NCBI GenBank assembly: GCA_907165275.2
Contig: OU015677.1
Coordinates: 6,013,001 to 6,077,000, forward strand
DNA: 64,000 nt
Source: Zygaena filipendulae
Taxonomy: Eukaryota; Arthropoda; Insecta; Lepidoptera; Zygaenidae
Direction of reading: 5' to 3'
The position numbers and the translations under genes were made by a program. Below, piece by piece: positions 2,231-23,399 of this stretch; the stretch's first letter is position 1; the number at the start of each line of letters is the position of its first letter. The notes under the pieces were generated by a model that searched no databases, was not told the DNA's origin, and saw nothing but the letters and a program-made list of their open reading frames with translations.

Positions 2231-2235
2231 ATAAC

Positions 2236-2535: not shown

Positions 2536-2539
2536 ATAT

Positions 2540-3640: not shown

Positions 3641-3897
3641 TTTTGGCAACAACTCTTCACAGTTGAACCTTAATAGGACGCTCTGTGGGAATTTGTACAG
3701 TAAAACGACAATCTCCCGATGAACGCCCAATTTCATCTTATTTCACTGTTTCCTCACACTGTTCATCACTAATGGATCACTATTATGCAAACTCCACCAC
3801 ATTCACACAATATTAATCACGATAAACTAATTTGCAAAACAAAGAAATAAAACTGACGTCTATCACTGCTAAAATCCCGCCAAAAGCCCTAGATGTC
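3641..3897 (-). repeat. Dispersed repeat paired with 24507-24716
   Basis: Read on the minus strand, this matches 24507-24716 closely. Shared blocks include GGGCTTTTGGCGGGATTTTA, a GTTTTATTT stretch, GTGAAATAAGATGAAAT and GGGCGTTCATCGGG, and both end with ACTGTGAAGAGTTG. The other copy lacks about 50 nt near the end. The family is unknown and there is no coding capacity. Confidence 0.7.
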
Positions 3898-3905
3898 AAT
3901 ATAAA

Positions 3906-6280: not shown

Positions 6281-6284
6281 ACAC

Positions 6285-6484
6285 CAGCCCAGCGACTATC
6301 CCTTGAAGTTACTATGGATTTATGGGCGAACTTCTTTACCAACTTTGGAATACTTAACCAAATCCCTATGACCGCGTCATACATTGTATTGGTATCTAAG
6401 GTTGACACAAAATGCTTTCATAGATCGGTTCAGCGATTAGTATGAAAGTGCCGACTCTTAAAACGTTGTGATTATTTGCTCAGT
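6285..6484 (+). repeat. Dispersed repeat paired with 57239-57445
   Basis: A block beginning CCAGCCCAGCGAC and ending TTTGCTCAGTG recurs at 57239-57445, with many long identical stretches such as CCAACTTTGGAATAC and TCATAGATCGGTTCAGCGAT. Both copies are in the same orientation. No open frame is conserved between them, so it is treated as a non-coding repeat. Confidence 0.75.
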
Positions 6485-6492
6485 GAACTACA

Positions 6493-6692
6493 CTAACTGT
6501 GCCCCGTACTTTCACCTGCGATAATTTCGGAGTTCCCGCGGTAATTCCGGGATAAAAGTATGTCTTTGTCCCTATGTCTTTTTCTGTATTCCTGACAACG
6601 TATATGCAAAATTTTATGATGATGCGTCGAGCCGTTGAGGCGTGAAAGCGTAACAGACAAACTCACTTTCGCATTTATAATATTAGTAAGGA
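6493..6692 (-). mobile_element. Helitron-like repeat copy
   Basis: The copy runs from CTGTGCCCCG through GGAGTTCCCGCG and a TCGAGCCGTTGAGGCGTG box to ATTTATAATATTAGTAAGG. It is a nearly full copy in reverse orientation. The hairpin end is damaged. Confidence 0.65.
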
Positions 6693-6699
6693 TTATTGC

Positions 6700-7236
6700 A
6701 TTTTTATTCTCTTCAAGTAGAGTAGGTAGGTAAATAACGAACATGCACTGACGTCTGACCACCATTGAAAAATATTATATATTTTTCTCATAACTTCTTA
6801 TTCAATAAATGTTGCAAAGCTTGCAAAGTAACTATAAATCCGATTTGGGTACTAAAGTTTTATTATCTACCTACATAATATGTTTGCTTGCTACTATAAC
6901 TATATTTGTAAAATCCTATTTTGAATTAATTTTAAAAAACTTCGAGTTAAGTTTATATAGTCTCAAGTTTTTGTGTAAATACAACCAACATTTTTCTCGT
7001 AAGTACTTTACTTTCGAAATGTTATAAAAATAACAACCACTGCACTCCATTCGCGAACCGTAGATTATCGTCCTCCGAAAACTGTTTCAAAATAAGAACA
7101 AGAGCATTCCGAATTCAAATCTCGCGCCGCCGCGTATAAATTTGTACGACGTTGTTTAGTTTTTTTTTTTTAAGAATATAAGGCAACGGAGACGCTTAAT
7201 TCAACGCGGCAACGCGCGATAAAGTGTTTACCGACT
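6700..7236. other. AT-rich flank of the Tc1 element
   Basis: No gene or bounded repeat is recognised between the Helitron-like copy and the Tc1 insertion. Confidence 0.5.
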
Positions 7237-7238
7237 TA

Positions 7239-7265
7239 CACACATCAAAAGTGTCTAGGGATCAA
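7239..7265 (+). repeat. Tc1-like element left terminal inverted repeat
   Basis: A 27-bp TIR directly follows the TA target site and matches the reverse complement of 8769-8795. Confidence 0.92.
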
Positions 7266-7507
7266 CATATATTTTTGCAATAACTTTTCTCCTGATTGAT
7301 ATTAATTAAAATTTTCTTTAAGGATTCATCAAATAAAGTGTTTTCGTTTGTCACAGTAACGATAAACCAAGTCACCTTTGCATTAATAAAGAAATTTGCC
7401 ATTTTCCTAATAAAGGGATTTTTGACATTTGAACCACTAACATTAAAGTTCGAAAAAAAGACTGAAATAACAGTTTTCTTTAAAATTTTATTGGGTAACT
7501 TAAACAA

Positions 7508-8533
7508 TTAATAATCCGTGTTTCTACCGCGAACACTAACAACACAAGAACATCGGTTTGGCATACTCAAAATGAGTTCATCCAAATCACGCTGTGGAAT
7601 GGCCGCCCATGTTCGTTGCAACAACAAAAAAAGGTCTTCTTGCGACTGGATACCCTCCATATTCGGCAGAGCTCTTCTCTGTAGCATATCCCATGCATGC
7701 TCAATCGGGTTCAAGTCTGGCGACTGAGCAGGCCAGGGCAGGACATTGATGTTAGCTGCGGCGAGAGTCTGTCTTACAACTCTTGCGGTGTGCGGTCGTG
7801 CATTATCATGCATTAACTGAAATAAGGGACCGATTTGCCTTTGTAGAGGAACGATGACGTCTGATGCAATCGTCTCAGCATAAATTTGAGCGTTGAGGTT
7901 GCCTCTGATCCAAATCAACTCAGTTCTTCCGCCGATCCAAATACCCGCACATACCATGATGGTTCCACCACTATAAGGATGGACTTCCTGGCAGGATTTT
8001 AATCGCTGTTGGCGTCCAGGGGTTTTCCAGTGTCGTATACGTCTTGTATCCGGTCTCATACCAAAACGAGACTCATCAGAAAAGCACACGAAACGCCATT
8101 GTTCTTCTGCCCAATTTCTGTGTTCAAGAGCCCATTGATATCGAATCCTACGATTGTGCATTGCTATAGGTGGTACCCGTAGCGGTCTTCGGGAATGAAG
8201 GTTCACTTCATGCAAGCGGTTTCTGACTGTTTGGTCGCTAATTAAGTTCCCTGAAGAGTGATGAAGCCTCACGGCTAACATCATGGCGGTTATTGTTGGA
8301 GCTCTTCGAGTTAAGATTTGAATGTATCGGTCTTGTCTCCGTGTGGTGCAGCGATACCGTCCTCTATGGCGCTCAGCCACGGTACCAGTGCTTCGGTAAC
8401 GTGTCCAAAGTCGACTGATAACACTCTGACTTGTATTCAGAGCTAAAGCCACAGTACGTTGCCGGGAACCAGCTTCTATCATTCCCACGGCTCTGAGCAT
8501 TTCTTCCCTGCTTAAATGACGTCGCCGCTCCAT
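7508..8533 (-). CDS. Tc1-like transposase (DD34E), intact
   Basis: This gene encodes the cut-and-paste transposase of the surrounding element. The start was set at 8533 (MERRRHLSREEM), giving 341 aa, the usual Tc1 length. An upstream in-frame Met at 8635 would add 34 residues unlike the family. Residues about 1-120 form the paired helix-turn-helix DNA-binding region (LNTSQSVISRLW is a recognition helix). The catalytic triad is visible: D153 in CFSDESRFG, D243 in MHDNARPH and E278 in SPDLNPIEHAW, with 34 residues between the second D and the E. There is no frameshift or stop. It is the only gene in the element, and its expression probably depends on the flanking TIR sequence. It is not a host gene. 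Confidence 0.95.
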   Translation of the reverse strand: MERRRHLSREEMLRAVGMIEAGSRQRTVALALNTSQSVISRLWTRYRSTGTVAERHRGRYRCTTRRQDRYIQILTRRAPTITAMMLAVRLHHSSGNLISDQTVRNRLHEVNLHSRRPLRVPPIAMHNRRIRYQWALEHRNWAEEQWRFVCFSDESRFGMRPDTRRIRHWKTPGRQQRLKSCQEVHPYSGGTIMVCAGIWIGGRTELIWIRGNLNAQIYAETIASDVIVPLQRQIGPLFQLMHDNARPHTARVVRQTLAAANINVLPWPAQSPDLNPIEHAWDMLQRRALPNMEGIQSQEDLFLLLQRTWAAIPQRDLDELILSMPNRCSCVVSVRGRNTDY

Positions 8534-8768
8534 AATAACGTTGGTTTTAATCAGTAGTAGGGAAACAGTAGCACTAATAATGTCTTCAATGCATTGTATG
8601 TTTTTATAGGGAAAATATTGACAGCTGATTTTCATCTTTTACTTGAATTTGATTGACAGTTCCTGATTCAAATTATGTAATGCACCAAAAAGGATCCATA
8701 TAAATTTAGAAAATCATAAATTTATTACAAAGCCACATCTCAATCTCAAGAAATCCGCATAAAAATGC

Positions 8769-8795
8769 TTGATCCCTAGACACTTTTGATGTGTG
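8769..8795 (-). repeat. Tc1-like element right terminal inverted repeat
   Basis: This is the reverse complement of the left TIR. It is followed by the duplicated TA at 8796-8797. Confidence 0.92.
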
Positions 8796-8799
8796 TATT

Positions 8800-9660
8800 T
8801 GCGGCCATGTTAACTTATTGAGTTTTATTTTACTTTTATACGGAGATAAAATATGGAAATGATTTTTTTTTAATAATTCAACCGCAGGTCTCCGGTGATT
8901 ATTTGTATCGCCTGTCGATTTTTTTATGTTTATGAATTGAGATTTAAAAAATATCTAAGTGAAACACACAAATTAATTCAACGCTAGATGCATGTTGTGA
9001 ATAATAATACTTAAATATTGTTACATTTGTATATAAAAAGCTCTGGAATCATCGATAAGAAAACCTTTTTAAACGTTGACATTGGCAAAATCTCGCCAAA
9101 ACGGTGGAGCCAATCTAAAAATTTGAAATTGGAAGTTTCCTTCACAAGAATCAAATTATTTATAAAAAAAAAAAACTCCGAAATTACCGCGGGTGAAATC
9201 GTCAGGAACAGCTAAGTACATTAGTACATAATATAACAAATCTTTCCTCTGAATTATAATATTAGTTTGGTAGATGTAGAGTGGAATTTAGCCTCACTCC
9301 TTGATCGTCTTAACTACAAAATGCTATTTCACGTGGATTTCACAGCTAATTTTAACCGAAATAACAGAACACAAGCTATCTTAAACATTATTTAATAAAA
9401 AAAAACTCAATCTCTTAACCTAAAATAAAATGAAATGTTAAAAAAATGTTGTAGACAATCGAATAAATCAACACAAGCATGAATAAAAAACTGTATGAAG
9501 TATTTTAGAAAATAATTATACACGCCGCTTGGGTGTTTGAATCTTGATGGTTTGTTTTTTTTGGATGACTTTTTTCCGAAGATCCCACGATAAGGCTGTC
9601 GAAGGAACAAGTTTAAGCTGTTAGAGGGTTCCGTAGAGATAAATCTAGGAGCTTTGTTAA
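8800..9660. other. Non-coding interval with a Helitron-like right end
   Basis: At 9175-9215 a plus-strand Helitron-like right end (AATTACCGCGGGTGAAATCG then CAGCTAAG) is recognisable. Its body, about 9035-9175, is degenerate. Nothing else is recognised. Confidence 0.5.
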
Positions 9661-9671
9661 ATAGACAATAG

Positions 9672-10345
9672 GTGGTACTGTCCTGGGCGGAGCGCGCACG
9701 TGCTGCTACTACCTCTAAGTGCTGGGTGCCTGGTAGTCATGAGTCCTCGTACATGAGCGAGGAGGTGTACTGTCCCGAGCGGAGCGCGCACGTGCTGCTA
9801 CCACCTCTGAGTGCTGGCCGCCTGGCAGTCATGAGTCCTGGTACATGAGCGGGGAGGTGGTACTGTCCCGGGCGGAGCGCGCACGTGCTGCTACCACCTC
9901 TCAGTGCTGGCCGCCTGGTAGTCATGAGTCCTGGTACATGAGCGGGGAGGTGGTACTGTCCCGGGCGGAGCGCGCGCACGTGCTGCTACCACCTCTGAGT
10001 GCTGGCCGCCTGGTAGTCATGAGTTCTGGTACATAAGCGAGGAGGTGGTACAGTCCCGGGCGGAGCGCGCACGTGCTGCTACTACCTCTGAGTGCTGGGA
10101 GCCTGGTAGTCATGAGTCCTGGTACATAAGCGAGGAGGTGGTACTGTCCCGGGCGGAGCGCGCACGTGCTGCTACTACCTCTGAGTGCTGGGAGCCTGGT
10201 AGTCATGAGTCCTGGTACATGAGCGAGGAGGTGGTACTGTCCCGGGCGGAGCGCGCACGTGCTGCTACTACCTCTGAGTGCTGGGAGCCTGGTAGTCATG
10301 AGTCCTGGTACATAAGCGAGGAGGTGGTACTGTCCCGGCCAGGCC
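9672..10345 (+). repeat. 93-bp GC-rich minisatellite, about seven units
   Basis: The landmark GTAC(T/A)GTCC recurs at 9675, 9767, 9860, 9953, 10048, 10141, 10234 and 10327. Spacings are 92, 93, 93, 95, 93, 93 and 93. Because 93 is divisible by three, long frames stay open on both strands (for example 10045-10467 plus and 9922-10362 minus), but they simply repeat a 31-residue unit. The array is much more GC-rich than its surroundings. No splice sites or known protein motif support a gene. Confidence 0.92.
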
Positions 10346-11268
10346 GTTACTACGGTACCCAATTAAAACTAACAATGAATAAATACATTGCACTACGTGT
10401 TGGCTGGTCCATTTGTCCGTGGGCCTGTATGCGAGCTCTCTTGAAATGGAATTATCACATTGGTTAACAGAAATGGACATATACAGCGTGTTCAAATAGT
10501 TTTCTGTTCACTCTTCTTGTTCTATAGGTAGTCCCGACGTTGTCTCAATAAGAAAATTTAAAGATGGATATCAAAGTTCCACTAAAACTAGTTGTGACAA
10601 AATATTTTTAGAATTAATTTAGGACTCAACCTACGTAACCTACCTACTTCTTAAGTTTAATTAAAATCCATTTAGCAGTTTTATCATAAGTGGGTTCAAA
10701 TAAACGGATAAATAGATAAACTTTTTCCCCTTCATTTTGCCAATTATAATTTTTAAGGTAGGTAGGTATAGATACAGACACTACACTTTTTTTTTGTTCA
10801 GATCAATAACTTATTTTCTAACACCATGTACATAAACAAAAGCAATAAGCAACAAACGACGCCGCCCATACACTTCAATAACCCTAGAAAAAAGCACATT
10901 ATCCACCCATCCCTCTCTTGCAGACGCTAATAGCTCGAACTCTCTCCCTCTAACTAACCTAAAATGGTCGGCGGCCACAAAATTAATAACATATATATCA
11001 CCAATTTACAAAGATCCGTCGTAGTCGAGAAATTTTTAAATCACAAAGGGTCAACTTACGTTGGTTGTGATTCCAAACTTTCTAGCTCCATCGCATATAA
11101 TTCACTTCGCTGGGGATAAAATTAATAATTATCTCACGATGGGAGCCATTTTGGCCTTTTTTGGGCAGGTCTTGTCAAAATAGAAGCATAATGGCCATGA
11201 GTTCTAATAGTTGCGGGACGAAAACTTTAAGGTTTATATTTCAATGTCGCATAAATAAAGATATCTTT
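10346..11268. other. No gene recognised
   Basis: No recognisable exon or bounded repeat was found between the minisatellite and the next Helitron-like copy. Confidence 0.5.
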
Positions 11269-11450
11269 AATCCTTACTGTAGGTACCTAGGTATTATAAA
11301 TGCGAAAGTGAGTTTGTTTTTTTGTTTGTTACGCTTTCACACCTTAACGGCTCAACCGGTCATCATGAAATTTTGTGCACACGTTGTCAGGGGTACAGAG
11401 AAGGACATAGGGTAGGTATTTTTTATCCCGAAATATCTAAGTTGAACCTT
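11269..11450 (+). mobile_element. Helitron-like repeat, right-truncated
   Basis: The copy starts TCCTTACTGTAGG with ATTATAAATGCGAAAGTG following. It continues through TCATCATGAAATTTTGTGC and GGACATAGGGTA, then stops before the CCGCGG hairpin. Confidence 0.65.
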
Positions 11451-12229
11451 TTTTTGGATAGATATTCTTCTGTTTTTGTGTAAAAGATATTTAACATTAT
11501 TAAAAAAAAAAAATTCTAGATACATAGAGATACATAGATGAGACCTTTGACCTGGGACTTATAACCCATGGCCATCCTACACCCAAATTACAGCGCCATA
11601 TTGTAAATACTTCCTTTTTTTATTCTATAATGGCGTTCGGGCGAAGGCTTCACTCGATCTGTAGCCGCGGGATGACTTCATATTATAATCTATGGTCCAT
11701 AGATGACTCTATATTATCTATGGACTATTATTTTTTCTCTTTCAAATCTAAATTATGAGATACGCGTCGCCGCAGATGTTTTGGTCGTAAATGGATTATT
11801 ATTTAATGATTTATATCTTTATATGTTAGATTACATAAACCGCAAGCTATAGCGGTAGGTACGGACTTAAAGACGGTCGTGGGTTCGAATCGAACTAAAT
11901 ACAAAACTACAATTCTGCCGCTGTTTAAATTTTCAATTGCAAACAAAAGATTGATTTCAGTTTGAGACAAAATTGAATTTTAAAATTAGTAAAACATGGC
12001 GGTTTTTTTACGAATCAAACTTTGATTTCGATTCGATTACATACTTACGTGCCTAGATGATTTTGATTTTGATCTCACCGCAGCTTCAAAAGTAGTAAAA
12101 TTTTTCGATCCTGCGACCTCATTTCGATTGCGTCAAGAGTATGAGACCCTTACTCGATCAACAACACCGGATTCAGCGTACCCAGTGGTACAATTTAACG
12201 GGTGGTGAAACCAGCTTACTACTCTTAGG
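11451..12229. other. No gene recognised; tRNA-like scrap
   Basis: A B-box-like GTGGGTTCGAATC lies near 11880, probably an old SINE fragment. No coding exon is seen. Confidence 0.4.
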
Positions 12230-12640
12230 TCCGTATTCCAGAAGGTGACTCACATCACGTTTCTCTTGAGATTAGTTTTAAGTTCAAATCATAACTCAAG
12301 CGTACATCTTATTATAGAATGCGTTTTAAGTTCTAATCACTTGAAACGAGTCTTGAGTAGGGATTCTGAACTCTGATTGGTTCTAATCACTTGAAAATAG
12401 TCTTGAGTAAAGATTTTGAACGCTGATTGGTTGAGTGGTCTTGACATGACAGATGTAAACAGAGATCAAATCTTTGCTTGAGTATAGATTACTACTTAAG
12501 CGTCGTTCTAGAATAAGGAAATAACTCAGCTGATTGTTGATTGATGAATCTCGTTTCAAGTAAGGTTCTAAAATTAACGCTTTACTTGAAATCAGTTTTA
12601 AAACTAGATTCATGACTTGAGTAACCTTTTGGAATACGGA
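12230..12640. mobile_element. MITE with 3-bp TAG flanks
   Basis: The inverted ends TCCGTATTCCA(G/A)AAGGT at 12230 and their complement ending at 12640 bound about 410 bp of non-coding DNA. TAG flanks both sides (12226-12228 and 12641-12643). Inside, a roughly 50-bp block (TCTAATCACTTGAAA...CTGATTGGTT) is tandemly duplicated at about 12333-12431. A 3-bp duplication suggests the PIF/Harbinger class; that assignment is inference. Confidence 0.65.
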
Positions 12641-12852
12641 TAGTCTTACTTATTCGTGGCGCGAACGCAACTTCGCGCCACGAGACGTAGTGGAACGCAC
12701 CCATCAATTGTTTATTGTACTTTTTCGAACGGATTTTGTATGTGAAAAAAACGTATGAACCCTCCATTATTATGTTGTCCTTGTTAGTTTTTTGAAGTGA
12801 AACAATTTTTGTGGCGGATTGTCATAACGAGACGTGATAAGGTAGATTAATC

Positions 12853-12940
12853 ATCCTCCTTAGCCAAGTTGAAAATCTTCTATCATTGTTTTCCATAGCA
12901 ATGATGATCAAAGATTGTCAAATTGGCTAATGAAGCAGGA
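12853..12940. repeat. Degenerate copy of the CCTTAGCCAAGTTG MITE family
   Basis: CCTCCTTAGCCAAGTTGAAA on the left and TTGTCAAATTGGCTAATG on the right are worn versions of the TIRs seen intact at 28726-28824 and 31746-32254. Confidence 0.6.
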
Positions 12941-13108
12941 TACTGTACTTATTCACTTAACTTGGACCAACATTCCTTGCCCATAACGCGCGTCCTAAAA
13001 ACAATCCCAAACGCTCCGGATGCCAAAATTTTAGAAATTACTTAATAGGTAGCGCAACTTCTTCATCATTTTTGTGGCGCGTTATCTTGACGCCACGTGG
13101 TATGGTCA

Positions 13109-13336
13109 TCCTACTAATATTATAAATATGAAAGTTTGGATGTTTGGACGTTTGGATGTGTGGATGTTTGGATGTTTGTTACTCATACTCAATCACGCAA
13201 AAACGGCTGAACGTAATTGGATGAAATTTGGCATGCACATTGTAAGGGGTATAGAAGGACATAGGGTACTTTTTATCCCGGAATTCCCGCGGAAACTCCG
13301 AAATTACCGCGGGTGAAACCGCGGGGCACAGCTAGT
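13109..13336 (+). mobile_element. Full-length Helitron-like non-autonomous element
   Basis: This is one of the best-preserved copies. It starts TCCTACTAATATTATAAA, has a short TTTGGATG repeat tract, then ACGGCTGAACG, GGACATAGGGTACTTTTTAT and AAATTACCGCGGGTGAAACC. It ends GCGGGGCACAGCTAGT. A TC start, a 3' GC hairpin and a terminal CTAG fit Helitron ends. It has no coding capacity and would depend on a Rep/helicase supplied elsewhere. Confidence 0.75.
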
Positions 13337-13754
13337 AGTGAATAAGGCTGTTTAGTATGAAAGGATATAAACAAACTGGCCTTTAGACTGTGTTACCTAT
13401 AATTTGGACAAAAATTCGAGGTGAAATTTTGTGGTCAATGTTTGCAGATGTTGTCCGGCGACGGACGCAGACGGTGGCAGGACGCGGCGGTCAGGGAATC
13501 ATTACGACAGCACAATAAGACGTAATGGATGCGGTCGCTTGTTGACTTTCTAAATCGGTACAATAACAAGGAATTAATCATGTTAATTCCATGGTTAAAC
13601 TAACTACACAGCGTACAGAGAAAACGAGGTCCCGCCTGACTCCCGGAGGAGGCAAAAACATTTGTTTTTTTGTAAAGTTTCAGGGAAGGCAAAGGAAATC
13701 TAGTCCTTAGAGCCAAGTCAGATATTAGAGAGGTAATTATTTAAGTCGAGCTAA

Positions 13755-13933
13755 TCTCCGCGGTTTTACTCGCGTTAATTTCAGAGTTTCCGCGGGTATT
13801 CCGGGAGAATAACCTATGTCCTTTTCTGTAGGTAAGAACCCCTGACAACGTGTATGCAAAATTTCATGATAATCTGTTGAGTAGTTAAGCAAAACAAACA
13901 AACGAAATCACATTCGCATTTATAATAATAGGA
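13755..13933 (-). mobile_element. Helitron-like repeat copy
   Basis: A reverse-orientation copy from CCGCGGTTTTACTCGCG to ATTTATAATAATAGG. The central CCCCTGACAACGTGTATG box is intact. Confidence 0.65.
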
Positions 13934-14465
13934 ATTGAACACTCAATAGACCAATTTAAATGTTAAAAACCCACAAATCAAAATGCCAACAATTAAAAAC
14001 CTGACGTCAATTTCTTTTTTTACAAGAAAAAATTCTCCACTGACAACAATAAATATTATGTCATTGATAAATTTAATGTTTTGACAGTTTCAAAAAAAGG
14101 ATGTCACGCCGTTTTCCCATACAAAAAAAAAGAAAAAGATTCAAACAAAATGGCTGTGAATAGGTTCGAAATTCATGGATCCGCGGCCTCTTTGTAGGTT
14201 TTATATCGGACGGGGTTTTTGTCACAACATATTTACGTCAATACAAGTATACCTGACGCCTCCATATATCAGCGGTGGGACGGTGTGTCGGTGCGTTTGT
14301 GCACGGGTGGTCTCCCGCACAGTGATGGTGTTAAAATCTTCTAAAATCCCCTAGTAGTAAGGAATCGTGGGTTTCCTTACTACTTCCCCTTGATGGAGTC
14401 TTCCGATCGAAGGTCGAGATTGGATTGACTTTCGTTCGACATTTATAGCACGAACTGGCTATTCC

Positions 14466-14637
14466 TAAACGAGTTAATTTCAGAGTTTCCGCGGGAATCC
14501 CGGGATGAAAAATACCCTGTATTCGTTGCTGTACCCCTGACAACGTATATGAAAAATTTCATGATGATCGGTTGAGTAACTAGAGCGAGAAAACGTAACA
14601 AACAAACACATTCGGATTTGCGTAGAGAAGTAAGGAT
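14466..14637 (-). mobile_element. Helitron-like repeat copy, hairpin end missing
   Basis: The body from GTTAATTTCAGAGTTTCCGC through CCCCTGACAACGTATATG to the AAACAAACAC end is recognisable. The terminal hairpin is lost. Confidence 0.6.
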
Positions 14638-14810
14638 AGGTTATAACTAGCTACTATAGGTAGGTGCCTACTTCGAGACACAGAAGTTTGTTTACCACTA
14701 CACCAACGATACAAGTGTTGAGTGGACTTAATATTATTTAATCCTTAAAATTATAATTCCGATCGTGTGTTCGTTTGTTTGTTAGGTACTAATATAATAA
14801 TATCTGTCTA

Positions 14811-15465
14811 TCTATACTTATAATAAAACTGTAGAGAGGTCAATTCTGTACATTGAATATATATTCAGAATTAATATTGGAGGATGAATGGTGATCGATA
14901 CTGATGACAAAAATGCAATCAGTAATTTTTTTGTCTGTTTGTCTGTCTGTATGTGCACGCATGGGTCAAAAACTACTGAAGGGATTTTAACCAAACTTGG
15001 TACGATTGTAGTCCATACTCCTGGGCAGGTTATAGGCTATATAACATAACGCTAAGATACATAGGAGCTGAGCAGTGGCGATAAATTTGAAGCAAGTCGG
15101 ATGAAAATACGCTTTCGAGTTATTATTCTCGCATACGCGTTTACTCAATCACGCAAAAACGGCTCAACGGATTTGTATGAAATTTGGCATGCATGTTGTC
15201 AGGGAACATAAGGTACTTTTTATCTCAGAATTTCCGCGGGAACTCCGAAATTACCGCGGGTGAAACCGCGGGGCATAGCTAGTAATATAATAAATGCGAA
15301 AATAACTTTGTCTGTCTGTTACCTTTTCACGCCTCAACTACTGAACCGATTATCACGAAATCTTGCATACACGTGTCAGGGTTACATAGAAGGACATAGG
15401 CTGCTTTAAATCCCGGAATTCCCGCGGGAACTGAAATTTCCACGGGTAAGACCTCGTGGAACAGT
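14811..15465 (+). mobile_element. Two adjacent Helitron-like elements
   Basis: 14811-15281 is a composite. Its left part begins CTATACTTATAATAAAACTG and contains GAAGGGATTTTAACC. Its right part carries the standard hairpin end GGGTGAAACCGCGGGGCAT followed by AGCTAG. A second copy follows at once, 15283-15465, ending in a worn CCACGGGTAAGACCTCGTGG hairpin. Confidence 0.6.
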
Positions 15466-16329
15466 TGAAATTTTATGTAGACGGTAAATTCTACCGATTC
15501 TAAAACTCATTTCACTGACAAAATAGATTCCTGTGGACCTAGGGTGATTAAATAAATCGGCAAAACCAATAGTGACATATTTCTTCATCGATCTAAATGC
15601 TGGTATAGGTATTGACCAACTGTCGTTACACTCTGTTTTGATTAAGTGTTTGCAACATTTTTATATTTTTTTTCTTTCATGTTTTGATTGTAAGTTGAAA
15701 TTATTATAATTCCTTTACTCAGACGAAATAAAAACTTATTTAACGAGTTTTGATTTCGTCTGAGTTCCTTTATTTTAATTTGCAGCTTAGAGCTTTACAA
15801 AAATTAATCTTATTATTATCTATCAAAGTGAACGTGACATGTTTTGTGTCAGAATTAATAAATAAATTAAAAAGAAATGGAATAAGTGGATCCGGGGTCT
15901 AAGCTATTAAGTATCGAGCGGTCAGTATTTGCCAGATGGTTAACGGATGTCCGACAAATGACGGGTTTACTCGAGGACTAAGTAGGCATTTAACTGAATA
16001 AGTACATATTATAATATGCGAGTACTAAGTACGGAGTTCTACCGGATAAGTACAGGAATTAGACAGGTTGTTTTTGGTTTTGCGGTTTATAAAGGTTTCT
16101 CGAATACAGGATAACATTTAAATCAGATGGACTTTCGAAATGGTAGATGTAGGTTACCGTTTGTTCTCTTTGTACCTATGTACGTTTATAGAAAAATACG
16201 CAGTATCTACGTAGGTAGTAAAAAAAACATTTCATAAGATATTTCCTATATAAAAAGAGATCAATGAAGAGTAATGAATTAATGAATAATTAGGTAGGTA
16301 TGTAAAATAGAATAAACTGATAATTTTAT
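15466..16329. other. No gene recognised
   Basis: AT-rich sequence with no bounded repeat or exon that I can support. Confidence 0.5.
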
Positions 16330-16990
16330 GTGCAGCAGCTTCGCTATTGTTAATGAGATTCCCTCGAGAACTGGATAAAAGATAGCCTATGTGAGAGAAT
16401 CTATCACATCTCATCAAATCCGTCCAGCCGTTTCAGCATGAAGGAGTAACAAATATTTTAACACACATTTTTCTTTGCGTTTTCACCCGCGATATTTTCA
16501 AAATTCCCGCTCGAATGCCGAGATAAAAAGTAGGAACCTTATCGTCGGGGATAGTGCAAAACCACGAATCTACTACAGGCAGGGAGCGCGTATCTGCCTA
16601 CAGAAGGTTACAGGAGAAGGAACTTTCTATTTTTTTATTTTTACAGATCTTGCAATAATAATTTATCGTTTCTGTGTATTGTTAACAATCTATCTAATAT
16701 TTTAATATTATTTATTAAGTCGGTACGGTTCGGTCGCGGTTTATGGTCGCGGTATTATAAATTGGCTATATTGCATTTTCGACCTTAAGGATTTGTCACA
16801 TACGCGGTTTTATCCAATGCTAGTTACGTGAATTTGCACTATCCCCGACGGTATGTCCTTTTCTGTACTCCTGCCAACATGTATGCAAAATTTCATGTTG
16901 TCATGTTGATCGCTCAAGATGTTAACCCGTGAAAGCGTAACCAACAAACAAACAAACATATAAACAAACACTCGAGTTTATAATATTAGA
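16330..16990 (-). mobile_element. Helitron-like repeat interrupted by a MITE
   Basis: A reverse copy starts at about 16478 (TTTTCACCCGCGAT) and stops at about 16541. It resumes at 16852 with GTATGTCCTTTTCTG and ends with TTTATAATATTAGAAT near 16990. The 16543-16850 MITE is inserted in its middle. A more diverged fragment of a related repeat lies at 16330-16475. Confidence 0.6.
16543..16850. mobile_element. 308-bp MITE with perfect 18-bp TIRs
   Basis: CGTCGGGGATAGTGCAAA at 16543-16560 is exactly complementary to 16833-16850. The element lies inside a Helitron-like copy. I could not settle the target duplication. The interior is non-coding. Confidence 0.8.
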
Positions 16991-17014
16991 ATCCCAACAG
17001 AAATTAGCTTGCTA

Positions 17015-17285
17015 GCGCCATCTACTAGTGAGTAGATAAATCCTTCATTTTAGTTTTTCTATGCAGCGCCATCTAGTATCGAGTAGTAGTAGTACTTAAT
17101 AATAGCTTTTCTGGTAAATAAAGGTAGTTTTTTATAAAACCACTAGATGGCACTTAAAATAACTAATGATGTATACGCCATCTACTGTAAGTACGTAGAA
17201 CCAATATAAAACGTAGTATGGTAGTATTTATTATTTGCTCATGGCTTAAAACTATTAAGTTCAGATTCAAATCACTAGATGGCAG
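17015..17285. promoter_or_regulatory. Cluster of five CTCF-like motifs
   Basis: Five matches to the CTCF-type core AGATGGC(G/A) occur in 271 bp: 17015-17028 (minus), 17066-17079 (minus), 17140-17153 (plus, CCACTAGATGGCAC), 17175-17188 (minus) and 17272-17285 (plus, TCACTAGATGGCAG). The plus-strand site at 17140 fits the full CCASYAGRKGGCRS consensus, and the others miss one or two outer positions. The intervening sequence is not duplicated, so this is not a simple tandem repeat. It lies about 0.8 kb past the AP-3 sigma extension stop. Function as an insulator is inferred. Confidence 0.5.
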
Positions 17286-17466
17286 TAATTACACTTGGAA
17301 ATAACGCCATATTTTGCGCGATATTTGTAATAAAATGTACCCTAATGCGCATTGCGCACTTCAGATACAAATCAAGCAATCATTGTTCTCTTTGGATAGA
17401 ATCATTTAGTAGTTGGTGAGAATCGGTAATGGCCATTCGTTGATTTTGTTTTATGATGAAGTGGAA

Positions 17467-17472
17467 TTTATT
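17467..17472 (-). terminator. Possible AP-3 sigma polyadenylation signal
   Basis: AATAAA on the minus strand lies about 620 nt beyond the extension stop at 18089. A second AATAAA is at about 17226-17231. Neither can be chosen without transcript data. Confidence 0.25.
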
Positions 17473-18088
17473 TAACACGAGATGAAACTGCCCACTATTA
17501 TACCTTTCTGAAAGCAATAGGTATAGTACGGTCTACCTACGATAAATAGGTTCCAAAAAATACGAAATTAAATACATTAACATAACGTATATTCTTACAA
17601 ATTACAATCTAAAATAGAACAATAAAATTAAAAATAACTAAAATTATTATGATATACATAACGAATTAACGGAAGTCACGCGTCGCACTCTTCCACCAAA
17701 AGGGAAATATACATTGGTTAGGTTCAAGATTATCTAATATACCTAATACATTATTTCTTCAGCCAATTGACAGTAAGTATATTATCTGTACATATATATT
17801 ATAACTAATTTATGATATTCCAGCTTTATATACTTATAATTTAAATTTTATCATTTCTCTAAGAATTAAGAACAAAAATAAACAAATTCTAACGTCACTC
17901 TAAAGTCTCCAACTCTAAAGGAATGTAGGATTCAATCTTAAACATCAAAATATGAGTTGAGGCAGTTGAGAGCTAAGAAATTACATTAATAATGAAGCTG
18001 AAATATTGACAAGTTACAAACACATCAAAGAAAATGCAGACAGAACCATGATTTTCTGATGCCGGCTGAAGAGTACCAAGTCTCTCCC

Positions 18089-18451
18089 TCACTGGCACCC
18101 CTTCCTGCTCCTCCTCTTCCTGCGCCTCCTGCCCTCCCCGGCCTCGGGGCCCACGTTGGACCCGCCCAGGTCCTGGTACCCCTCGCCCCCGCGGCCCTCG
18201 TACTCCGGGAAGTTGACGCCGTCCGTCTGCTGATAGTTCTCCGAGAAAGTCTCCGAGAACTTGGCGCTGAGCGTCTCCGAGCCGAAGAACTTGGTGAAGT
18301 GGTCCGCCGGGGGCTGGTGGGGGGATGTGTGGGATGTGTGGGGGGGATGCTGCAGGTCCTGGTACCGGTCCGGGTGGGGGCAGATGGTGGTGAGGATGTT
18401 GGCGGCGAGCGCGACGGGCGTGGCTGCCGGGTGGCCGCCGGGCTGCAGCGG
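18089..18451 (-). CDS. Putative in-frame C-terminal extension of AP-3 sigma
   Basis: Directly after the AP-3 sigma TGA, the same frame is open for 120 codons to a TGA at 18089-18091. Codons are strongly G/C-ending, like the accepted AP-3 exons and unlike the surrounding AT-rich introns. The predicted segment is Pro/His-rich at first, then has an acidic/aromatic stretch (HFTKFFGSETLSAKFSETFS). It ends in a basic run, RRRRKRRSRKGCQ. It has no internal Met, so it cannot be a separate ORF of that length. It could be expressed by readthrough of TGA-C (312 aa in all), or by the downstream acceptor at 18443-18444, which removes exactly 24 nt including the stop (304 aa). I recognise no family. It could instead be an exon of an unseen gene or GC-rich 3'UTR. 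Confidence 0.5.
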   Translation of the reverse strand, partial: PLQPGGHPAATPVALAANILTTICPHPDRYQDLQHPPHTSHTSPHQPPADHFTKFFGSETLSAKFSETFSENYQQTDGVNFPEYEGRGGEGYQDLGGSNVGPEAGEGRRRRKRRSRKGCQ

Positions 18452-18466
18452 TCAGAACTTGAGGTC
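18452..18466 (-). CDS. or: AP-3 sigma terminal coding exon (DLKF-stop)
   Basis: Residues 188-191 (DLKF) and TGA at 18452-18454. The acceptor AG is at 18467-18468. The base after the stop is C (TGA-C), the leakiest stop context. A second AG at 18443-18444 is a possible alternative acceptor. Confidence 0.88.
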   Translation of the reverse strand, partial: DLKF

Positions 18467-21400
18467 CTGCGGCGACGGAGGGATCATTGTACATACTATT
18501 ATTATGATGTAGTATTTTATTATATTACTAGCTGTCCCGCGCGGTTTCACCCGCGATAAGTTCGAAGTTCCCGCGGAATTGTTCCATACAAACTTTGCAA
18601 TCCCTTTTCATTCCCTTAGGGGCTGAATTTTCAAAAATCCTTGCTTATCGGATGCCTACGTCATACAAAGAACACACCCTCCAAGTTTCAGGTCTCTACG
18701 ACTAGCGGTTTAGGCTGGGCGTTGATCTATCAATCTCAGTCATTCAGGACAAAACTTTTTATATGTATAGATTAGCAGTTTTACTCAGGTAAACATAGGA
18801 ATTGCCGGAGGAATTCCGGAATAAAATATACCCTATATCCGTTTCTGTACCCCTTCTAACGTGTGGGCAAAATTTCACAATGATCGGTTGAGTAGCTAAG
18901 GCGTGACAAGGTCCACTAAACTACACTACAAGTCCACTACCCTACACGGCCACTGCGCCACACGTCCACTACCCTGCACATCCACTACCTATTCACGTCC
19001 GCTACTCTACACGTCCACTACCCTGCACGTCCACTACCCTACACATCCACTACCCTGCACATCCACTACCCTACACGTCCACTACCCTGCACATCCACTA
19101 CCCTGCACGCCCACTACCCTGCACGCCCACTACCCCGCACGGCCGCTACCTCCCCCAGGGTACCTTGATGGCCTGCGGCAGGTCGGGCAGGCGCATGTCG
19201 CGCAGCTGCTGCGGCAGGTTCATGCTCTTCACAGCGGAGACGGCACGCGCCGGCGCAGCCGAGATACCCGCCTGCAGATTAAACACAAACATACATACAA
19301 ATAAATCATAAATCATTTTATAGGGTACTACATGTGTCCTGCGGTTTCACCCGCGGTAATATCGGAATTCCCGCGGGAATTCCGGATACAATATAGCCTA
19401 TGTTACTCGGGGATGTAAGATTCTAATGAGGACAGAATTTTTGAAATCGGTCCGGTAGTTTTTGAGTTAAATCGTAACAAACAAACAAAGAAACAAAAAA
19501 TAAAATCTTTCCTGTTTATAATATCAGTATATAATATGTAGATACATTTCTGATGCCGTCTGTACCTCGGCTTTCTGCATCTTGTTCTGCTCCTGCAGCC
19601 GGCTGAGGATCTCGGCCATGTTGGTCTGCAGCACCATCCCACCCATCACCAGCTCGTCCAACACCTGGAAATTGGAAAGCAACCATATTCAATGAAGTCT
19701 TTGTTGGATACAGTGAATAGGGGCGACTAGCCACTGAGGTAATATGGACGAAAATAGCGAATGGCTGCGATACCACAAAAACAAACACTTTTTATGATAC
19801 TAATTTTACAAATGTCACATCGAAGTAAAACAGGAGTTCGCTGAAAACGAATATGCACCTTATGACATTAGGGTATAAGGTCGATTATGAATGTATCACC
19901 TGGTGCGCGGCGTCCGCGTGGAAGATGAGGTCCAGCTCGCACACGTTCTCGAAGCACTTGTCTAGCGTCTCGACGAACACCTGTATATAAATAAATTAAA
20001 TAACAGTATAGTCTTGATTATCTGAACCCTCGATTATCCGAATGCTGACTTAATTTATCCGAACGCTGACTTAGTTTATCCGAACGCTGACTTAGTTTAT
20101 CCGAACGCTGACTTAGTTTATCCGAACGCTGACTTAGTTTATCCGAACACTGGCTTAGTTTACCTGAACACTGGCTTAGTTTACCTGAACGCTGACTTAG
20201 TTTATCCGAACACTGGCTTAGTTTACCTGAACACTGGCTTAGTTTACCTGAACGCTGACTTAGTTTATGCGAACGCTGACTAACTTTATCCGAACGCTGA
20301 CTTAGTTTATCCGAACCCTCAATTACCCGAACGCTGGTATAATGATGATCAATTAAGCAGTTATGGCGTGAAAGCGTAACGAACAAACAAACAAACTCAC
20401 TTTCGCTTTTGTAAGGATAGTTGATAGGTAGAGGGGATACTCGTGTACTCGTATTGAACTTTGTACGTCGTATTTTGAACATCGTACTTTAGTAGTACCG
20501 CACTCATTTTCAGGTCTATCATTAACAACAGTATTTTATCTATTACTAGCTGTTCCTCGGGGTTTCACCAGCGTTAATTTCGGAGTTTCCGCGGGAATTC
20601 CGAGACAAAAAGTATCCTGTGTCCTTCTCTGTACCCCTGACAACATGTATGCAAAATTTCACGATGACCGGTTGAGGCGTGAAAGTGTAACAAACAAACA
20701 AAATCACTTTAGCATTTATAATATTAGTAAGGATTGTAAAAGCAAAAGGTCACTCACTGACGATATAGTATAAAATCTGAATAATTAAAATCTTGGAATA
20801 GAAGATGACGTGTGGACCATCAGCTATTAATTTATATGATTGAATTTTTGTTAGAAAGTGTTGACAGTTGATGGTTAAGAGTTAAGACTTAGAGAGATGT
20901 CGACCCACCTGTATCAGATCCAGTATGCCCAACTCGCTCTCGGACGAGTCCACACAGAACACGAAGTACAGCGTCGCGTAGTGGCGATAGATGAGCTTGT
21001 AGTCCGAGCCGCCAATCAGGCTGATGACAACAGACATGCGACACAATCATTGTGATGAAACATTGTGAGGAAACCACACTGCACACTTGTTGGAAGCAGT
21101 TCGTGCTTGTGTTCACGTCCACACACAGCAGGGTACGAAGCCTAGGACTATGCCTCAGCATCAGGGACTTAAAAGGCTGATTATGCTGCATTTTTTTAAC
21201 CATGATTTTGCCTGATGGAGAGTTATGTGTTGACAACCATACATTTCACTCTATTGGAGCGGGAGCGCGATAGTAATATGGCTCGACCGCCACCAGAGGG
21301 GAAGCTTCCCGCAGGGCAAAGCGGTGTGCCCGGGGAACCGCAGCTTCGACTGTAGACGGATGCAGCGCCATGTGAAAACATCGTTAGTGCGATTCAGGAT

Positions 21401-23399
21401 TTCCATATAGCTAGTGTTCATTGTTTTGTTGGAGTTTGTGACTTGTGGCGTAGAGGTCGCCACACTATCATAGTTTTAAACTGAGGTTTCATTTCCAAAG
21501 TCTAGTATTTGACTAAATTTTTGTCCTGTAGATTCATAAAAAATATTAGACACGTATTCTCTCTTTTTTACGTAAGTAAAAAGTAACGGAGATACGTTGA
21601 GTCGAAATGTCACGTAACTCACGTAACGTCACAAGTAGCTACAGTTTTCACCTGCTTATGACGTTACGAGCCCCCACTTCTAAACTTTAATGCACTTTAT
21701 CCAAGTATATTTTCATTGTTTTGGAAAAGCAATGTGTGTCAATTATATTTTTATTATCTAACTGACGGACTAAATGAAAATACTGGTTGCAGATTCCCCT
21801 CACCTGCCACCCTCTAAGAAGTTGCAGACATTATCGTCCCGCTTGGAAACCAACTGGAATGTCTCCTTTATTATCTGCTGCTGCATATCTTCGTTCTGCA
21901 AACCCAAACACGTCGAAATTCTAAGAGTTGTATTCTATTCTATTACATAATATAACAATAAATACAACAAAGTGTTTGGTACAAATCTTTATTTCTTTCT
22001 GAAGAACTTTATTTCTCACTAACGGTCCACTGCAGTTTCACCTGCGTTAGTATCAGAGTTTCTGCAGGAATTCCGGGATAAACTGTACCTACAAACCTTC
22101 ACCCTATCTATTGGTGAAAATCGCATTAAAATCTGGTATGTCGTTTAAGAGATCTAAGCATACATACAGCGACCTTTGTATATAATACATGAAATTCTAT
22201 TTGTTTTGCCTCGCTAAAAGTCGAGAATGGCTGGACCGATTTGGCTAATTTTGATTTTGAAATATTTGTGGAAATTCAGGGAAGGTCTGTATTAAAGAAA
22301 ATTGGGAATTCCTGCGGGAATTCTGAAACTCACGCGCGAAACCGTGGGGCACAACTAGTACTATGTAAAGATAAAGAACTACATAAATTTAATTTCAGAG
22401 AAGACATAAATTTTAACTTAAAATACTTAGATCAAATAAAAACTAACACTAGACTACACTATAAATCCTAAGTAAACTTTGCAAATCCATACACCATCCT
22501 AATCACCACATGCATACGCAACCGGCTTCACTTCGTTGTTCGAGACGTTCCGTCTTAAGTTTTTATTTGGTCTGAGTTAAAATAATACATATTTAGAAAC
22601 TGGCACAGTCAGGGCAACTTAAACTTAATAAAAAGCTTAACATAATATTGTACAGATAAATAATAAATCGGGTAGATAATCACAAACACTATCGGGTAGG
22701 TAAATAATTGCTAAAGGAATTAACAAAGCAGCTATACCTATTTAACTCGTTAAGCAACTAGGGGTATAAAACACACCGAGCCATACACATTCTAGATATG
22801 GTACAAACCACACACCATGGCAACACTCAATTATTTTTCTATGTTAGTATATTGTGATTTTATATTGGTAAGTTTATATGAATTATTTACAATAAATAAT
22901 TAAAGAAATTAACAATTATATGCAGTTGGTTTTATGCATTTTTAATGTAATTTGCAATGTTGTAGTATGGTTTTTTAAAATTTTGTCCAAATGTAAAAAT
23001 TTTTGTCAATTTTTAAAACTGTTTATTGTTTTTGCACTCCTAAATCTATAGGTATATAGGCACATAAAACTAAATGCCTTGCTTCCTTTTATAACAAACA
23101 CTAACATTTTTAGCAATTGAACTCCAAAGAGGTTTCTGTTCTTTTTTAAGTTATTAAATTTGGTATCAAAGCACCCTTTTTCAGGTAAATAAACACATTC
23201 AGAATTTTCAATGGTAATCAAACACTAAAAACAGTCAGAAACATAATTATGGAAAGACAGACAGAAAATTCCGATTTTGGTCTCCTGAATTTCGGTATCT
23301 AAAGGCACCATGTATAGTTAAATCACTTACAAAATATTGATAGAACTTCGATAATCGAGGCTTCCCATGATTGTTGAACACCAATATAGCTTTTATCAT
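18452..23399 (-). CDS. or: AP-3 adaptor complex sigma subunit, seven exons
   Basis: This is the small (sigma) subunit of the AP-3 coat, which sorts membrane cargo from endosomes or the trans-Golgi to lysosomes and pigment granules. Coding exons in transcript order are 23331-23399, 21804-21895, 20909-21020, 19900-19980, 19566-19664, 19164-19271 and 18452-18466. All have GT/AG junctions and the phases join cleanly, giving 191 aa. The protein starts MIKAILVFNNHGKPRLSKFY and contains QQQIIKETFQLVSKRDDN, NFLEGGSLIGGSDYKLIYRH and CVDSSESELGILDLIQ, which are diagnostic AP-3 sigma blocks. The C-terminus is AISAAP-type followed by LPQAIKDLKF. Only one residue (Ser54) is split by an intron. Introns hold two minisatellites and several MITE/Helitron-like copies. 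Losing AP-3 subunits gives eye-colour phenotypes in insects (Drosophila orange). Confidence 0.96.
18527..18776 (-). mobile_element. Helitron-like/other repeat in AP-3 sigma intron 6
   Basis: It starts ACTAGCTGTCCCGCGCGG and passes CCTCCAAGTTTCAGGTCTCT and GGCTGGGCGTTGATC. It ends AAAACTTTTTATATGTATAG. The left end matches the common family but the body is different, so it is a separate subfamily sharing that end. A diverged common-family fragment follows at about 18785-18905. Confidence 0.6.
18912..19150 (+). repeat. 16-bp minisatellite in AP-3 sigma intron 6
   Basis: Units of the type CCACTACCCTGCACGT repeat about fifteen times, becoming more regular toward the right. The array ends only about 14 nt from the exon 6 splice donor. 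The plus-strand frame through it is an accident of the repeat. Confidence 0.88.
19164..19271 (-). CDS. or: AP-3 sigma coding exon 6
   Basis: Residues 152-187, AGISAAPARAVSAVKSMNLP followed by a Gln/Arg-rich stretch to LPQAIK. The donor GTACCC runs directly into a 16-bp minisatellite in the intron. Confidence 0.94.
19336..19530 (-). mobile_element. Helitron-like repeat in AP-3 sigma intron 5
   Basis: A copy from CCTGCGGTTTCACCCGCGG to TTTATAATATCAGTAT. Its middle is the GTTACTCGGGGATGTAAG variant also seen at 59729-59925 and 61177-61345. Confidence 0.65.
19566..19664 (-). CDS. or: AP-3 sigma coding exon 5
   Basis: Residues 119-151, containing ELVMGGMVLQTNMAEIL and the start of the C-terminal helical tail. 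It is phase 0 on both sides, with a GTACAG donor. Confidence 0.95.
19900..19980 (-). CDS. or: AP-3 sigma coding exon 4
   Basis: Residues 92-118, VFVETLDKCFENVCELDLIF followed by HADAAHQ. It is phase 0 on both sides. The HADAAHQ end is less typical than the preceding conserved stretch. Confidence 0.95.
20032..20335 (-). repeat. 21-bp minisatellite in AP-3 sigma intron 3
   Basis: About fourteen units of GAACGCTGACTTAGTTTATC type, period 21. The minus strand stays open as repeats of the heptad LSQRSDK or LSQCSGK. It lies within the intron between exons 3 and 4. A truncated Helitron-like end follows at 20340-20420. Confidence 0.88.
20545..20734 (-). mobile_element. Helitron-like repeat in AP-3 sigma intron 3
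   Basis: Nearly full length, from ACTAGCTGTTCCTCGGGG to TTTATAATATTAGTAAGGAT. Confidence 0.7.
20909..21020 (-). CDS. or: AP-3 sigma coding exon 3
   Basis: Residues 54-91, the most conserved part (GGSDYKLIYRHYATLYFVF then CVDSSESELG). The acceptor is ATCAG and the donor is GTGGGT. Confidence 0.96.
21503..21785 (-). mobile_element. CRE-type MITE, degenerate copy A (AP-3 sigma intron 2)
   Basis: Shares the TTTGACTAAATTTTTGTCC end, the ACACGTATTC box, the ACGTCAC region and the CTGACGGACTAAAT end with better copies at 53149-53480 and 31897-32227. Its central palindromes are mutated. Confidence 0.65.
21804..21895 (-). CDS. or: AP-3 sigma coding exon 2
   Basis: Residues 24-53 plus two bases of Ser54. 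The acceptor is TTTGCAG at 21896 and the donor is GTGAGG at 21803. It encodes the MQQQIIKETFQLVSKRDDN segment. Confidence 0.96.
22022..22360. mobile_element. Helitron-like fragments in AP-3 sigma intron 1
   Basis: A reverse fragment (GCAGTTTCACCTGCGTTAGT and following) lies at about 22030-22095. A plus-strand right end (GGGAATTCCTGCGGGAATTC ... ACCGTGGGGCACAACTAGT) lies at about 22200-22361. Confidence 0.5.
23331..23399 (-). CDS. or: AP-3 sigma coding exon 1
   Basis: Residues 1-23, from the ATG at 23399 to a phase-0 GTAAG donor at 23330. Exon 1 ends after QYF, at the start of the longin-like fold. Confidence 0.95.

What the first reader, a model, noticed from the sequence alone, without database searches (positions are those of the whole stretch)
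18089..18466. AP-3 sigma has a 120-codon in-frame extension behind its stop
The annotated-type protein ends DLKF-TGA. The TGA is followed by C, and the same frame then stays open for exactly 120 GC3-rich codons, whereas the neighbouring introns are AT-rich. A second CAG acceptor at 18443-18445 removes 24 nt including the stop and keeps frame. Either readthrough or tandem-acceptor splicing would add a Pro/His-rich, then acidic, then Arg/Lys-rich tail (RRRRKRRSRKGCQ) to a normally compact coat subunit. Such a tail could bind cargo, nucleic acid or another coat component. I know of no AP-3 sigma with this.
Basis: partly seen in the sequence, partly recalled or inferred. Interest (0 to 1): 0.8.

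Follow-up and report, generated by a model that had tools for sequence, protein, structure and literature searches.

The report
Hidden conserved tail on AP-3 sigma
In this moth or butterfly genome, a small protein of the cell's cargo-sorting coat can probably be made with a long extra tail hidden behind its normal stop signal, and related butterflies and moths keep the same tail, so it is very likely a real second form of the protein.

Summary
On the minus strand a normal AP-3 sigma gene (187 residues + DLKF-TGA) is followed by 120 in-frame codons. Openness alone is not significant (1503 of 5000 shuffles), but GC3 of 0.95 is (0 of 5000). Protein searches return ten AP-3 sigma clusters with the same tail, nine from named Lepidoptera and one unnamed (window tail 46-57% identical). 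In 8 of 10 the tail follows ...LPQAI[KR] directly, without DLKF: the product that the second CAG acceptor (18443-18445) predicts. The unnamed P0010, from a 1247-nt contig, reads DLKF-W-PLSQGAYNATPV, so there the tail sits just behind the stop position. The tail is a conserved alternative C-terminus, best explained by tandem-acceptor splicing. Readthrough is not excluded and looks likelier in two Diptera-like sequences (P0014, P0016), which also continue DLKF-W-P. The tail is predicted mostly disordered, with a short helix, two YxxPhi motifs of the cargo-signal type in 11 of 11 tails, and a Lys/Arg-rich end. Proposed role (inferred): built-in pseudo-cargo and membrane tether regulating AP-3. 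Ten literature searches listed no paper describing it.

The parts
23331..23399 (-). AP-3 sigma coding exon 1 (start codon at 23399)
   Evidence: Donor GT and translation; PF01217 5.3e-49 and human AP-3 sigma-1 chain 9c58_S 1.1e-93 for the joined product
21804..21895 (-). AP-3 sigma exon 2
20909..21020 (-). AP-3 sigma exon 3
19900..19980 (-). AP-3 sigma exon 4
19566..19664 (-). AP-3 sigma exon 5
19164..19271 (-). AP-3 sigma exon 6, ends ...LPQAIK (residue 187), phase 0
18467..18469 (-). proximal acceptor CAG of the last exon; gives ...K-DLKF-stop
   Evidence: DLKF is the commonest ending among the proteins that could be parsed (30 of 59 parsed, of 122 held)
18443..18466 (-). 24-nt segment GACCTCAAGTTCTGACCGCTGCAG: codes DLKF-stop-PLQ, or is removed with the intron when the distal CAG (18443-18445) is used
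   Evidence: relatives joined K|tail without DLKF
18452..18454 (-). TGA stop of the short form, followed by C
18089..18451 (-). tail reading frame, 120 codons plus TGA (18089-18091); 117 codons are used if the distal acceptor is taken
   Evidence: homologous tails in ten protein clusters
18383..18418 (-). PVALAANILTTI: counterpart of the only helix predicted in the tail of the Maniola protein P0004 (residues 193-204)
   Evidence: hydrophobic moment of PVALAANILTTIC reached by 217 of 5000 shuffles
18353..18364 (-). YQDL, first YxxPhi motif
   Evidence: counterpart present in 11 of 11 tails
18233..18292 (-). KFFGSETLSAKFSETFSENY, best conserved block of the tail
18167..18178 (-). YQDL in EGYQDL, second YxxPhi motif
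   Evidence: counterpart present in 11 of 11 tails
18101..18130 (-). RRRRKRRSRK basic cluster; Lys-rich in the relatives, Arg-rich here
17467..17472 (-). AATAAA, first poly(A)-signal-like hexamer downstream; one terminal exon would hold both endings (inference)
   Evidence: another at 17232

Best explanation
The gene makes two AP-3 sigma proteins. The short form ends DLKF at a UGA. The long form replaces DLKF with a conserved tail of 117 residues, because the splicing machinery joins exon 6 to a second CAG 24 nt downstream of the usual acceptor and so removes the stop codon in frame. The tail (mostly disordered, one short helix, two YxxPhi motifs, a Lys/Arg-rich end) probably works as a tethered pseudo-cargo. 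Its YxxPhi motifs would bind the tyrosine-signal pocket of mu3 in the same or a neighbouring AP-3, and its basic end would bind acidic phosphoinositide membrane. This would create a subset of AP-3 with altered cargo access, membrane residence or clustering. Shown: the frame, codon structure, protein-level conservation, and relatives' annotated proteins joined without DLKF. Inferred: use of the acceptor in this species, and everything about function. The confidence given is for the existence of the long form by splicing; the pseudo-cargo role alone is about 0.25.
For: Coding signal: GC3 0.95, 0 of 5000 shuffles. Conservation: the window tail finds six proteins, all AP-3 sigma of Lepidoptera, E 8.9e-22 to 1.8e-14; the Maniola tail finds ten, three more named Lepidoptera and the unnamed P0010 among them. 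Window tail identity 46-57% (40/87 to 50/88) against core identity 182-185 of 187 in the eight rows with a complete core. Junction: 8 of 10 join K/R directly to the tail without DLKF (P0003-P0006, P0008, P0009, P0011, P0012); P0004, P0005 and P0012 are named 'isoform X2'. The short form also exists in Lepidoptera (Pieris brassicae P0026, Spodoptera exigua P0049, Leptidea sinapis P0069). The distal site has 10 of 17 pyrimidines, the gene's six other acceptors 9-12. Tail similarity at one place only in the 366-Mb assembly (query P0004, 12 candidates scored). Both YxxPhi motifs in 11 of 11 tails. The genome encodes AP-3 mu, with AYFDVVEE identical to the mu3 chain of 4ikn. AP-3 binds YxxPhi cargo and prefers PI(3,5)P2 membranes (PMC13178560, passages and section 7 seen).
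Against: No RNA read from this species was seen. Some relatives' proteins are probably ab initio predictions that could have placed the junction to avoid a stop; 'X2' suggests but does not prove transcript support. P0010 and the Diptera-like P0014/P0016 keep DLKF in front of the tail, which fits readthrough better. Two of the four to eight tyrosines per tail having a hydrophobic residue at +3 is not striking by itself. No binding was tested; the structure model is weak (mean pLDDT 54.7, at least 61 of the 98 tail residues under 50).
Confidence: 0.75

Rival explanations
1. Translational readthrough of the UGA-C stop makes the long form (DLKF-X-PLQ-tail), in Lepidoptera as well as in flies; the splice-joined models in relatives are annotation artefacts or a minor route.
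For: Stop is TGA followed by C, and the frame continues at once. P0010 (1247-nt contig, 352 aa, so intron-free) keeps DLKF-W-PLSQ-tail; P0014 and P0016, with dipteran-like cores, read DLKF-W-PN and DLKF-W-PS followed by tails similar to each other (score 80 against a shuffle mean of 29, 0 of 500) from just behind the W. I take the W as TGA read by a gene caller using code 4: in P0014 and P0016 it is the only W, P0010 has two more far downstream and P0018 one at its end, and P0031 ends DLKLW where others end DLKL. Readthrough is abundant in Drosophila and Anopheles (PMC5100048, abstract and passages).
Against: 8 of 10 lepidopteran-type long forms lack DLKF and join directly. No marked RNA structure behind the stop (z -1.67, 11 of 200 shuffles fold as well). 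The UGA-CUAG motif that triggers readthrough in four human genes (PMC5100048, passage) is absent: the window reads TGA-CCG. That W is TGA could not be checked on DNA.
Confidence: 0.2
2. The block is an exon of a different gene, or an independently translated frame in the 3' UTR, not part of AP-3 sigma.
For: GC-rich island bounded by AT-rich DNA; other frames are open as well. The searches could not have found a tail-only protein, because candidates had to be about 0.55-1.75 times the length of the full protein.
Against: In ten of ten proteins found the tail is on the same polypeptide as the AP-3 sigma core; no Pfam family in the tail or in one opposite-strand frame; no Met in the 120-residue tail.
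Confidence: 0.03
3. Chance open frame in a GC-rich 3' UTR.
For: 1503 of 5000 shuffles are open.
Against: 0 of 5000 shuffles reach the GC3 seen; homologous tails in nine named Lepidoptera.
Confidence: 0.01
4. The tail is real but its basic end is a nuclear or RNA-binding signal rather than a membrane or cargo-site element (a rival on function only).
For: RRRRKRRSRK / KKRKKKKK resembles such signals (recalled); predicted and functional NLS exist among Drosophila readthrough extensions (PMC3840789, passages).
Against: The tail is attached to a coat subunit, and the conserved YxxPhi motifs have an obvious partner in the same complex. Not tested.
Confidence: 0.15

Closest known systems
AP-3 complex subunit sigma-1/sigma-2 (human AP3S1/AP3S2; Drosophila orange, recalled)
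   Same: Small adaptor chain, PF01217 over 141 of 142 positions; aligned to human-type AP-3 sigma-1 over residues 1-183
   Different: Plain insect forms end DLKF at about 191 aa; here an alternative ending adds 117 residues in place of DLKF
AP-3 complex subunit sigma isoform X2 of Maniola, Aricia and Epargyreus, and database proteins of Papilio, Pieris, Danaus, Euphydryas, Scirpophaga, Eumeta
   Same: Same tail on the same subunit, 8 of the 9 joined directly without DLKF
   Different: Window tail has a His/Pro-rich insert (HPPHTSHTSPHQPPA) and mostly Arg instead of Lys in the basic end
Stop-codon readthrough genes of Drosophila and Anopheles (PMC5100048; PMC3840789)
   Same: In-frame coding sequence directly behind a UGA-C stop
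   Different: Here an in-frame tandem acceptor can remove the stop. The main texts of both papers were searched for AP-3 with 0 hits; their supplementary gene lists were not looked at, so the gene may be listed there
Pseudo dileucine motif at the beta3 N-terminus that occludes the sigma3 site in compact AP-3 (PMC13178560, passage)
   Same: A coat subunit carrying its own mimic of a cargo signal
   Different: Here the mimic would be of the tyrosine class, on sigma, and present only in one isoform; binding not shown

Membership tests
AP-3 sigma subunit | clathrin adaptor small-chain domain over its full length | tested here: met
   PF01217 5.3e-49, profile 1-141 of 142
AP-3 sigma subunit | closer to sigma of AP-3 than to sigma of AP-1, AP-2, AP-4 or zeta-COP | tested here: met
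   AP-3 sigma-1 1.1e-93; best AP-2 sigma 3.5e-28, AP-1 2.1e-27, AP-4 2.8e-26, zeta-COP 1.6e-06
tandem-acceptor alternative splicing | second AG in frame with the first in the same exon | tested here: met
   CAG at 18443-18445, 24 nt
tandem-acceptor alternative splicing | product of the distal site observed | tested here: inconclusive
   8 of 10 relatives' proteins have the expected junction, but these are database proteins and no junction read was available
stop-codon readthrough gene | conserved coding frame directly behind a conserved stop | tested here: inconclusive
   frame and tail conserved at protein level; P0010, P0014, P0016 read DLKF-W-P, the W being probably TGA but its DNA not seen
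stop-codon readthrough gene | no splice variant explains the downstream coding signature (criterion in PMC5100048, passage) | tested here: not met
   in Lepidoptera a splice variant would explain it
stop-codon readthrough gene | ribosome footprints or protein across the stop | not testable with these tools
   no such data held
YxxPhi sorting-signal ligand of mu3 | Y-x-x-hydrophobic conserved in an accessible segment | tested here: met
   two motifs in 11 of 11 tails, region of mostly low model confidence, taken as disorder
YxxPhi sorting-signal ligand of mu3 | binding to mu3 | not testable with these tools
   no binding assay or complex prediction on hand

The most novel reading that the evidence does not exclude
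AP-3 sigma of holometabolous insects has an old, selected 'second ending' encoded behind a UGA stop: flies reach it by readthrough and moths and butterflies by a tandem splice acceptor. In both it equips the coat with its own tyrosine sorting signal and a basic stretch, so that one subunit switches between plain and self-liganded AP-3.
Probability: 0.25. Interest if true: 0.8.

Novelty: new variant of a known kind. Interest (0 to 1): 0.62.

Why it matters
AP-3 sigma is generally treated as an invariant small subunit (recalled). A conserved isoform with a long disordered tail would mean that insects tune AP-3 by its smallest subunit, with a cargo-like motif inside the coat. It would also be a clean case for asking how readthrough and alternative splicing replace one another as ways past the same stop codon. 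AP-3 makes pigment and other lysosome-related granules in insects (established for the Drosophila eye-colour genes; recalled), so a phenotype would be easy to score.

Tried and rejected
Chance frame: rejected by GC3 and relatives. Separate gene or antisense gene: disfavoured (no Pfam match; tail on the AP-3 sigma polypeptide in ten of ten proteins found, though the length limits of the search would have hidden a tail-only protein). Second copy of the tail elsewhere in the genome: the search with P0004 found tail similarity only here (12 candidates scored); a search with the window tail itself did not complete. Homology of lepidopteran and dipteran tails: not shown (profile comparison probability 0.6%, E 0.1, 13 columns; pairwise shuffle counts from 4 to 228 of 300), so I claim only the same place and a similar layout. 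P0018's tail resembles none of five others tested (35 to 351 of 500 shuffles as high). Amphipathic helix for KFFGSESLSTKFSETFSENY: rejected (1285-1705 of 5000 shuffles as high in five versions); the PVAIATNILNTIY helix is only suggestive (101-217 of 5000). RNA structure behind the stop: weak. First structure prediction from 10 similar rows failed (mean pLDDT 35.1); the second, with 74 of the 120 proteins found, gave a moderate core. No relatives' DNA was found in the viral and bacterial collections, so no synonymous-rate test could be run. Literature: (ten searches; judged by the listings, and only PMC13178560, PMC5100048 and PMC3840789 were looked into) gave no paper on an extended AP-3 sigma.

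Full report
WHAT IS THERE. The minus strand of the window carries a seven-exon gene whose joined product is AP-3 sigma: exons 23399-23331, 21895-21804, 21020-20909, 19980-19900, 19664-19566, 19271-19164 and a last exon starting at 18466, with GT donors and AG acceptors. The product matches PF01217 at 5.3e-49 and human-type AP-3 sigma-1 at 1.1e-93, far above other adaptor sigmas (best 3.5e-28). The last exon begins GAC CTC AAG TTC TGA, i.e. DLKF-stop, a common insect ending (of 122 proteins held, 59 could be parsed: 30 ended DLKF, 4 DFKF). The same frame then runs for 120 codons to a TGA at 18091-18089.

IS IT MORE THAN CHANCE. The open frame alone is not: 1503 of 5000 dinucleotide shuffles of the stretch are open, and both other minus frames and a plus frame span it open too. 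The codon structure is: GC at positions 1, 2, 3 is 0.625, 0.525, 0.95, and no shuffle of 5000 reaches that GC3; the first six exons have 0.567, 0.289, 0.807. The GC-rich block ends about where the frame ends.

RELATIVES. A search with the tail only, allowing candidates of roughly full AP-3 sigma length, returned six proteins among 100 candidates at E <= 10, all AP-3 sigma of Lepidoptera with E 8.9e-22 to 1.8e-14: Scirpophaga, Maniola (isoform X2), Aricia (isoform X2), Papilio, Eumeta and Pieris. The Maniola tail as query returned ten among 45 candidates: the six, plus Euphydryas, Danaus, Epargyreus (isoform X2) and an unnamed P0010 from source 'lgn' (I take lgn to be assembled public reads, Logan, which is recalled). 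Because of the length limits a tail-only protein could not have been found. Against the window, tails are 46-57% identical (40/87 to 50/88), cores 182-185 of 187 in the eight rows with a complete core; P0007 and P0008 have aberrant N-termini. The species belong to several families, from Psychidae (Eumeta) to butterflies (recalled taxonomy), so the tail has been kept for a long time while evolving much faster than the core. One telling detail: the basic end is Lys-rich in the relatives and Arg-rich in this GC-rich gene (the P0010 row ends elsewhere), so charge was kept while letters changed.

ROUTE PAST THE STOP. In 8 of 10 relatives the tail follows ...LPQAI[KR] directly and DLKF is missing; Eumeta also lacks DLKF but has about 50 extra residues there, probably a prediction error; P0010 alone has DLKF. 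Joining exon 6 to 18442 in the window predicts the common form (IK-PGGHPAATPV). Some relatives begin Q-AYP or QG and others AYP, as expected for nearby alternative AGs (inference). P0010 is encoded on a contig of 1247 nt although this gene has six introns in the window, so it should derive from RNA; it reads DLKF-W-PLSQGAYNATPV and then the tail. That places the tail right behind the stop position in the same mRNA, with a tandem spacing of 27 nt against 24 here if its acceptor is the CAG of the Q codon (inference). I read the W at residue 192 as a TGA translated by a gene caller using code 4. In P0014 and P0016 it is the only W; P0010 has two more, at 306 and 341, behind the basic end; P0031 shows DLKLW where relatives end DLKL. 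I could not see the DNA, and a sense TGG is not excluded.

BEYOND LEPIDOPTERA. A profile search with the long AP-3 sigma gave 2899 proteins among 7987 scored candidates, of which the best 120 were listed. Among those, P0014 and P0016 have dipteran-like cores and read DLKF-W-PNTNFD... and DLKF-W-PSNSTID...; their tails are similar to each other (0 of 500 shuffles) from just behind the W. Lucilia (P0017) and Glossina (P0082) predictions carry another pair of similar tails (0 of 500). P0018, of unknown origin, also reads DLKF-W-P but its 51-residue tail resembles none of five others tested and has no YxxPhi motif. Dipteran and lepidopteran tails are not demonstrably homologous: the profile comparison gave a probability of 0.6%. 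They share the place behind the stop, a YxxPhi motif (two in 11 of 11 lepidopteran-type tails, a third in P0010; YxPI in 4 of 4 dipteran ones, which I chose from the listing) and a basic stretch, weaker in P0016.

HOW IT MAY WORK. The structure model gives a longin-like core and, in the tail, one helix (193-204 of P0004), with at least 61 of 98 tail residues under pLDDT 50, compatible with disorder. The conserved short elements are KYQNL-type and GYQDL-type motifs and the basic end. AP-3 recognises YxxPhi cargo through mu3 and prefers PI(3,5)P2 membranes; a cryo-ET study used the cargo peptide ...SDYQRL and describes a pseudo-dileucine motif on beta3 that blocks the sigma3 site in compact AP-3 (PMC13178560; passages and section 7). 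[quoted passage not shown] This genome encodes AP-3 mu on contig C3 with the segment AYFDVVEE identical to the solved mu3 domain. I therefore propose, as inference, that the long sigma is a self-liganded subunit: a tyrosine pseudo-cargo plus a membrane tether. It may auto-inhibit cargo capture, hold AP-3 at the membrane, or bridge neighbouring complexes.

WHAT IS KNOWN. Automatic annotation already contains such proteins as isoforms. Ten literature searches listed no paper describing them, judged by titles and abstracts. The main texts of PMC5100048 and PMC3840789, both searched for AP-3, hold no occurrence; their supplementary gene lists were not looked at, and the gene could appear there under another name. 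The readthrough paper of 2011 in Genome Research (recalled) is not held.

VERDICT. Real, conserved, and undescribed as far as searched: a second C-terminus for AP-3 sigma. My odds: existence of the extended protein in Lepidoptera about 0.97; tandem splicing as the main route there about 0.75; the pseudo-cargo role about 0.25.

Noticed in passing
7508-8638 (-): Uninterrupted 376-aa frame of a Tc1/mariner-type transposase (HTH_Tnp_Tc3_2 2.1e-22, DDE_3 2.8e-17).
   Followed up: partly
9670-10338: Minisatellite, 93-bp unit, 7.2 copies, 94% matches.
   Followed up: no
18920-19150: 16-bp minisatellite (14.4 copies) in intron 6, ending 13 nt from exon 6, whose donor must be joined to either acceptor of the last exon; it might affect splicing.
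   Followed up: no
20034-20316: 21-bp minisatellite (13.5 copies) in the intron between exons 3 and 4.
   Followed up: no
62626-63816 (+): Exon of a ZIP zinc transporter (PF02535 7.8e-27).
   Followed up: partly
P0018 (243 aa, source lgn): A further AP-3 sigma that reads DLKF-W-P and then a 51-residue tail unlike the others tested. The residue after the W is P in P0010, P0014, P0016 and P0018, and CCG follows the TGA in the window, so TGA-CC may be a kept context.
   Followed up: partly
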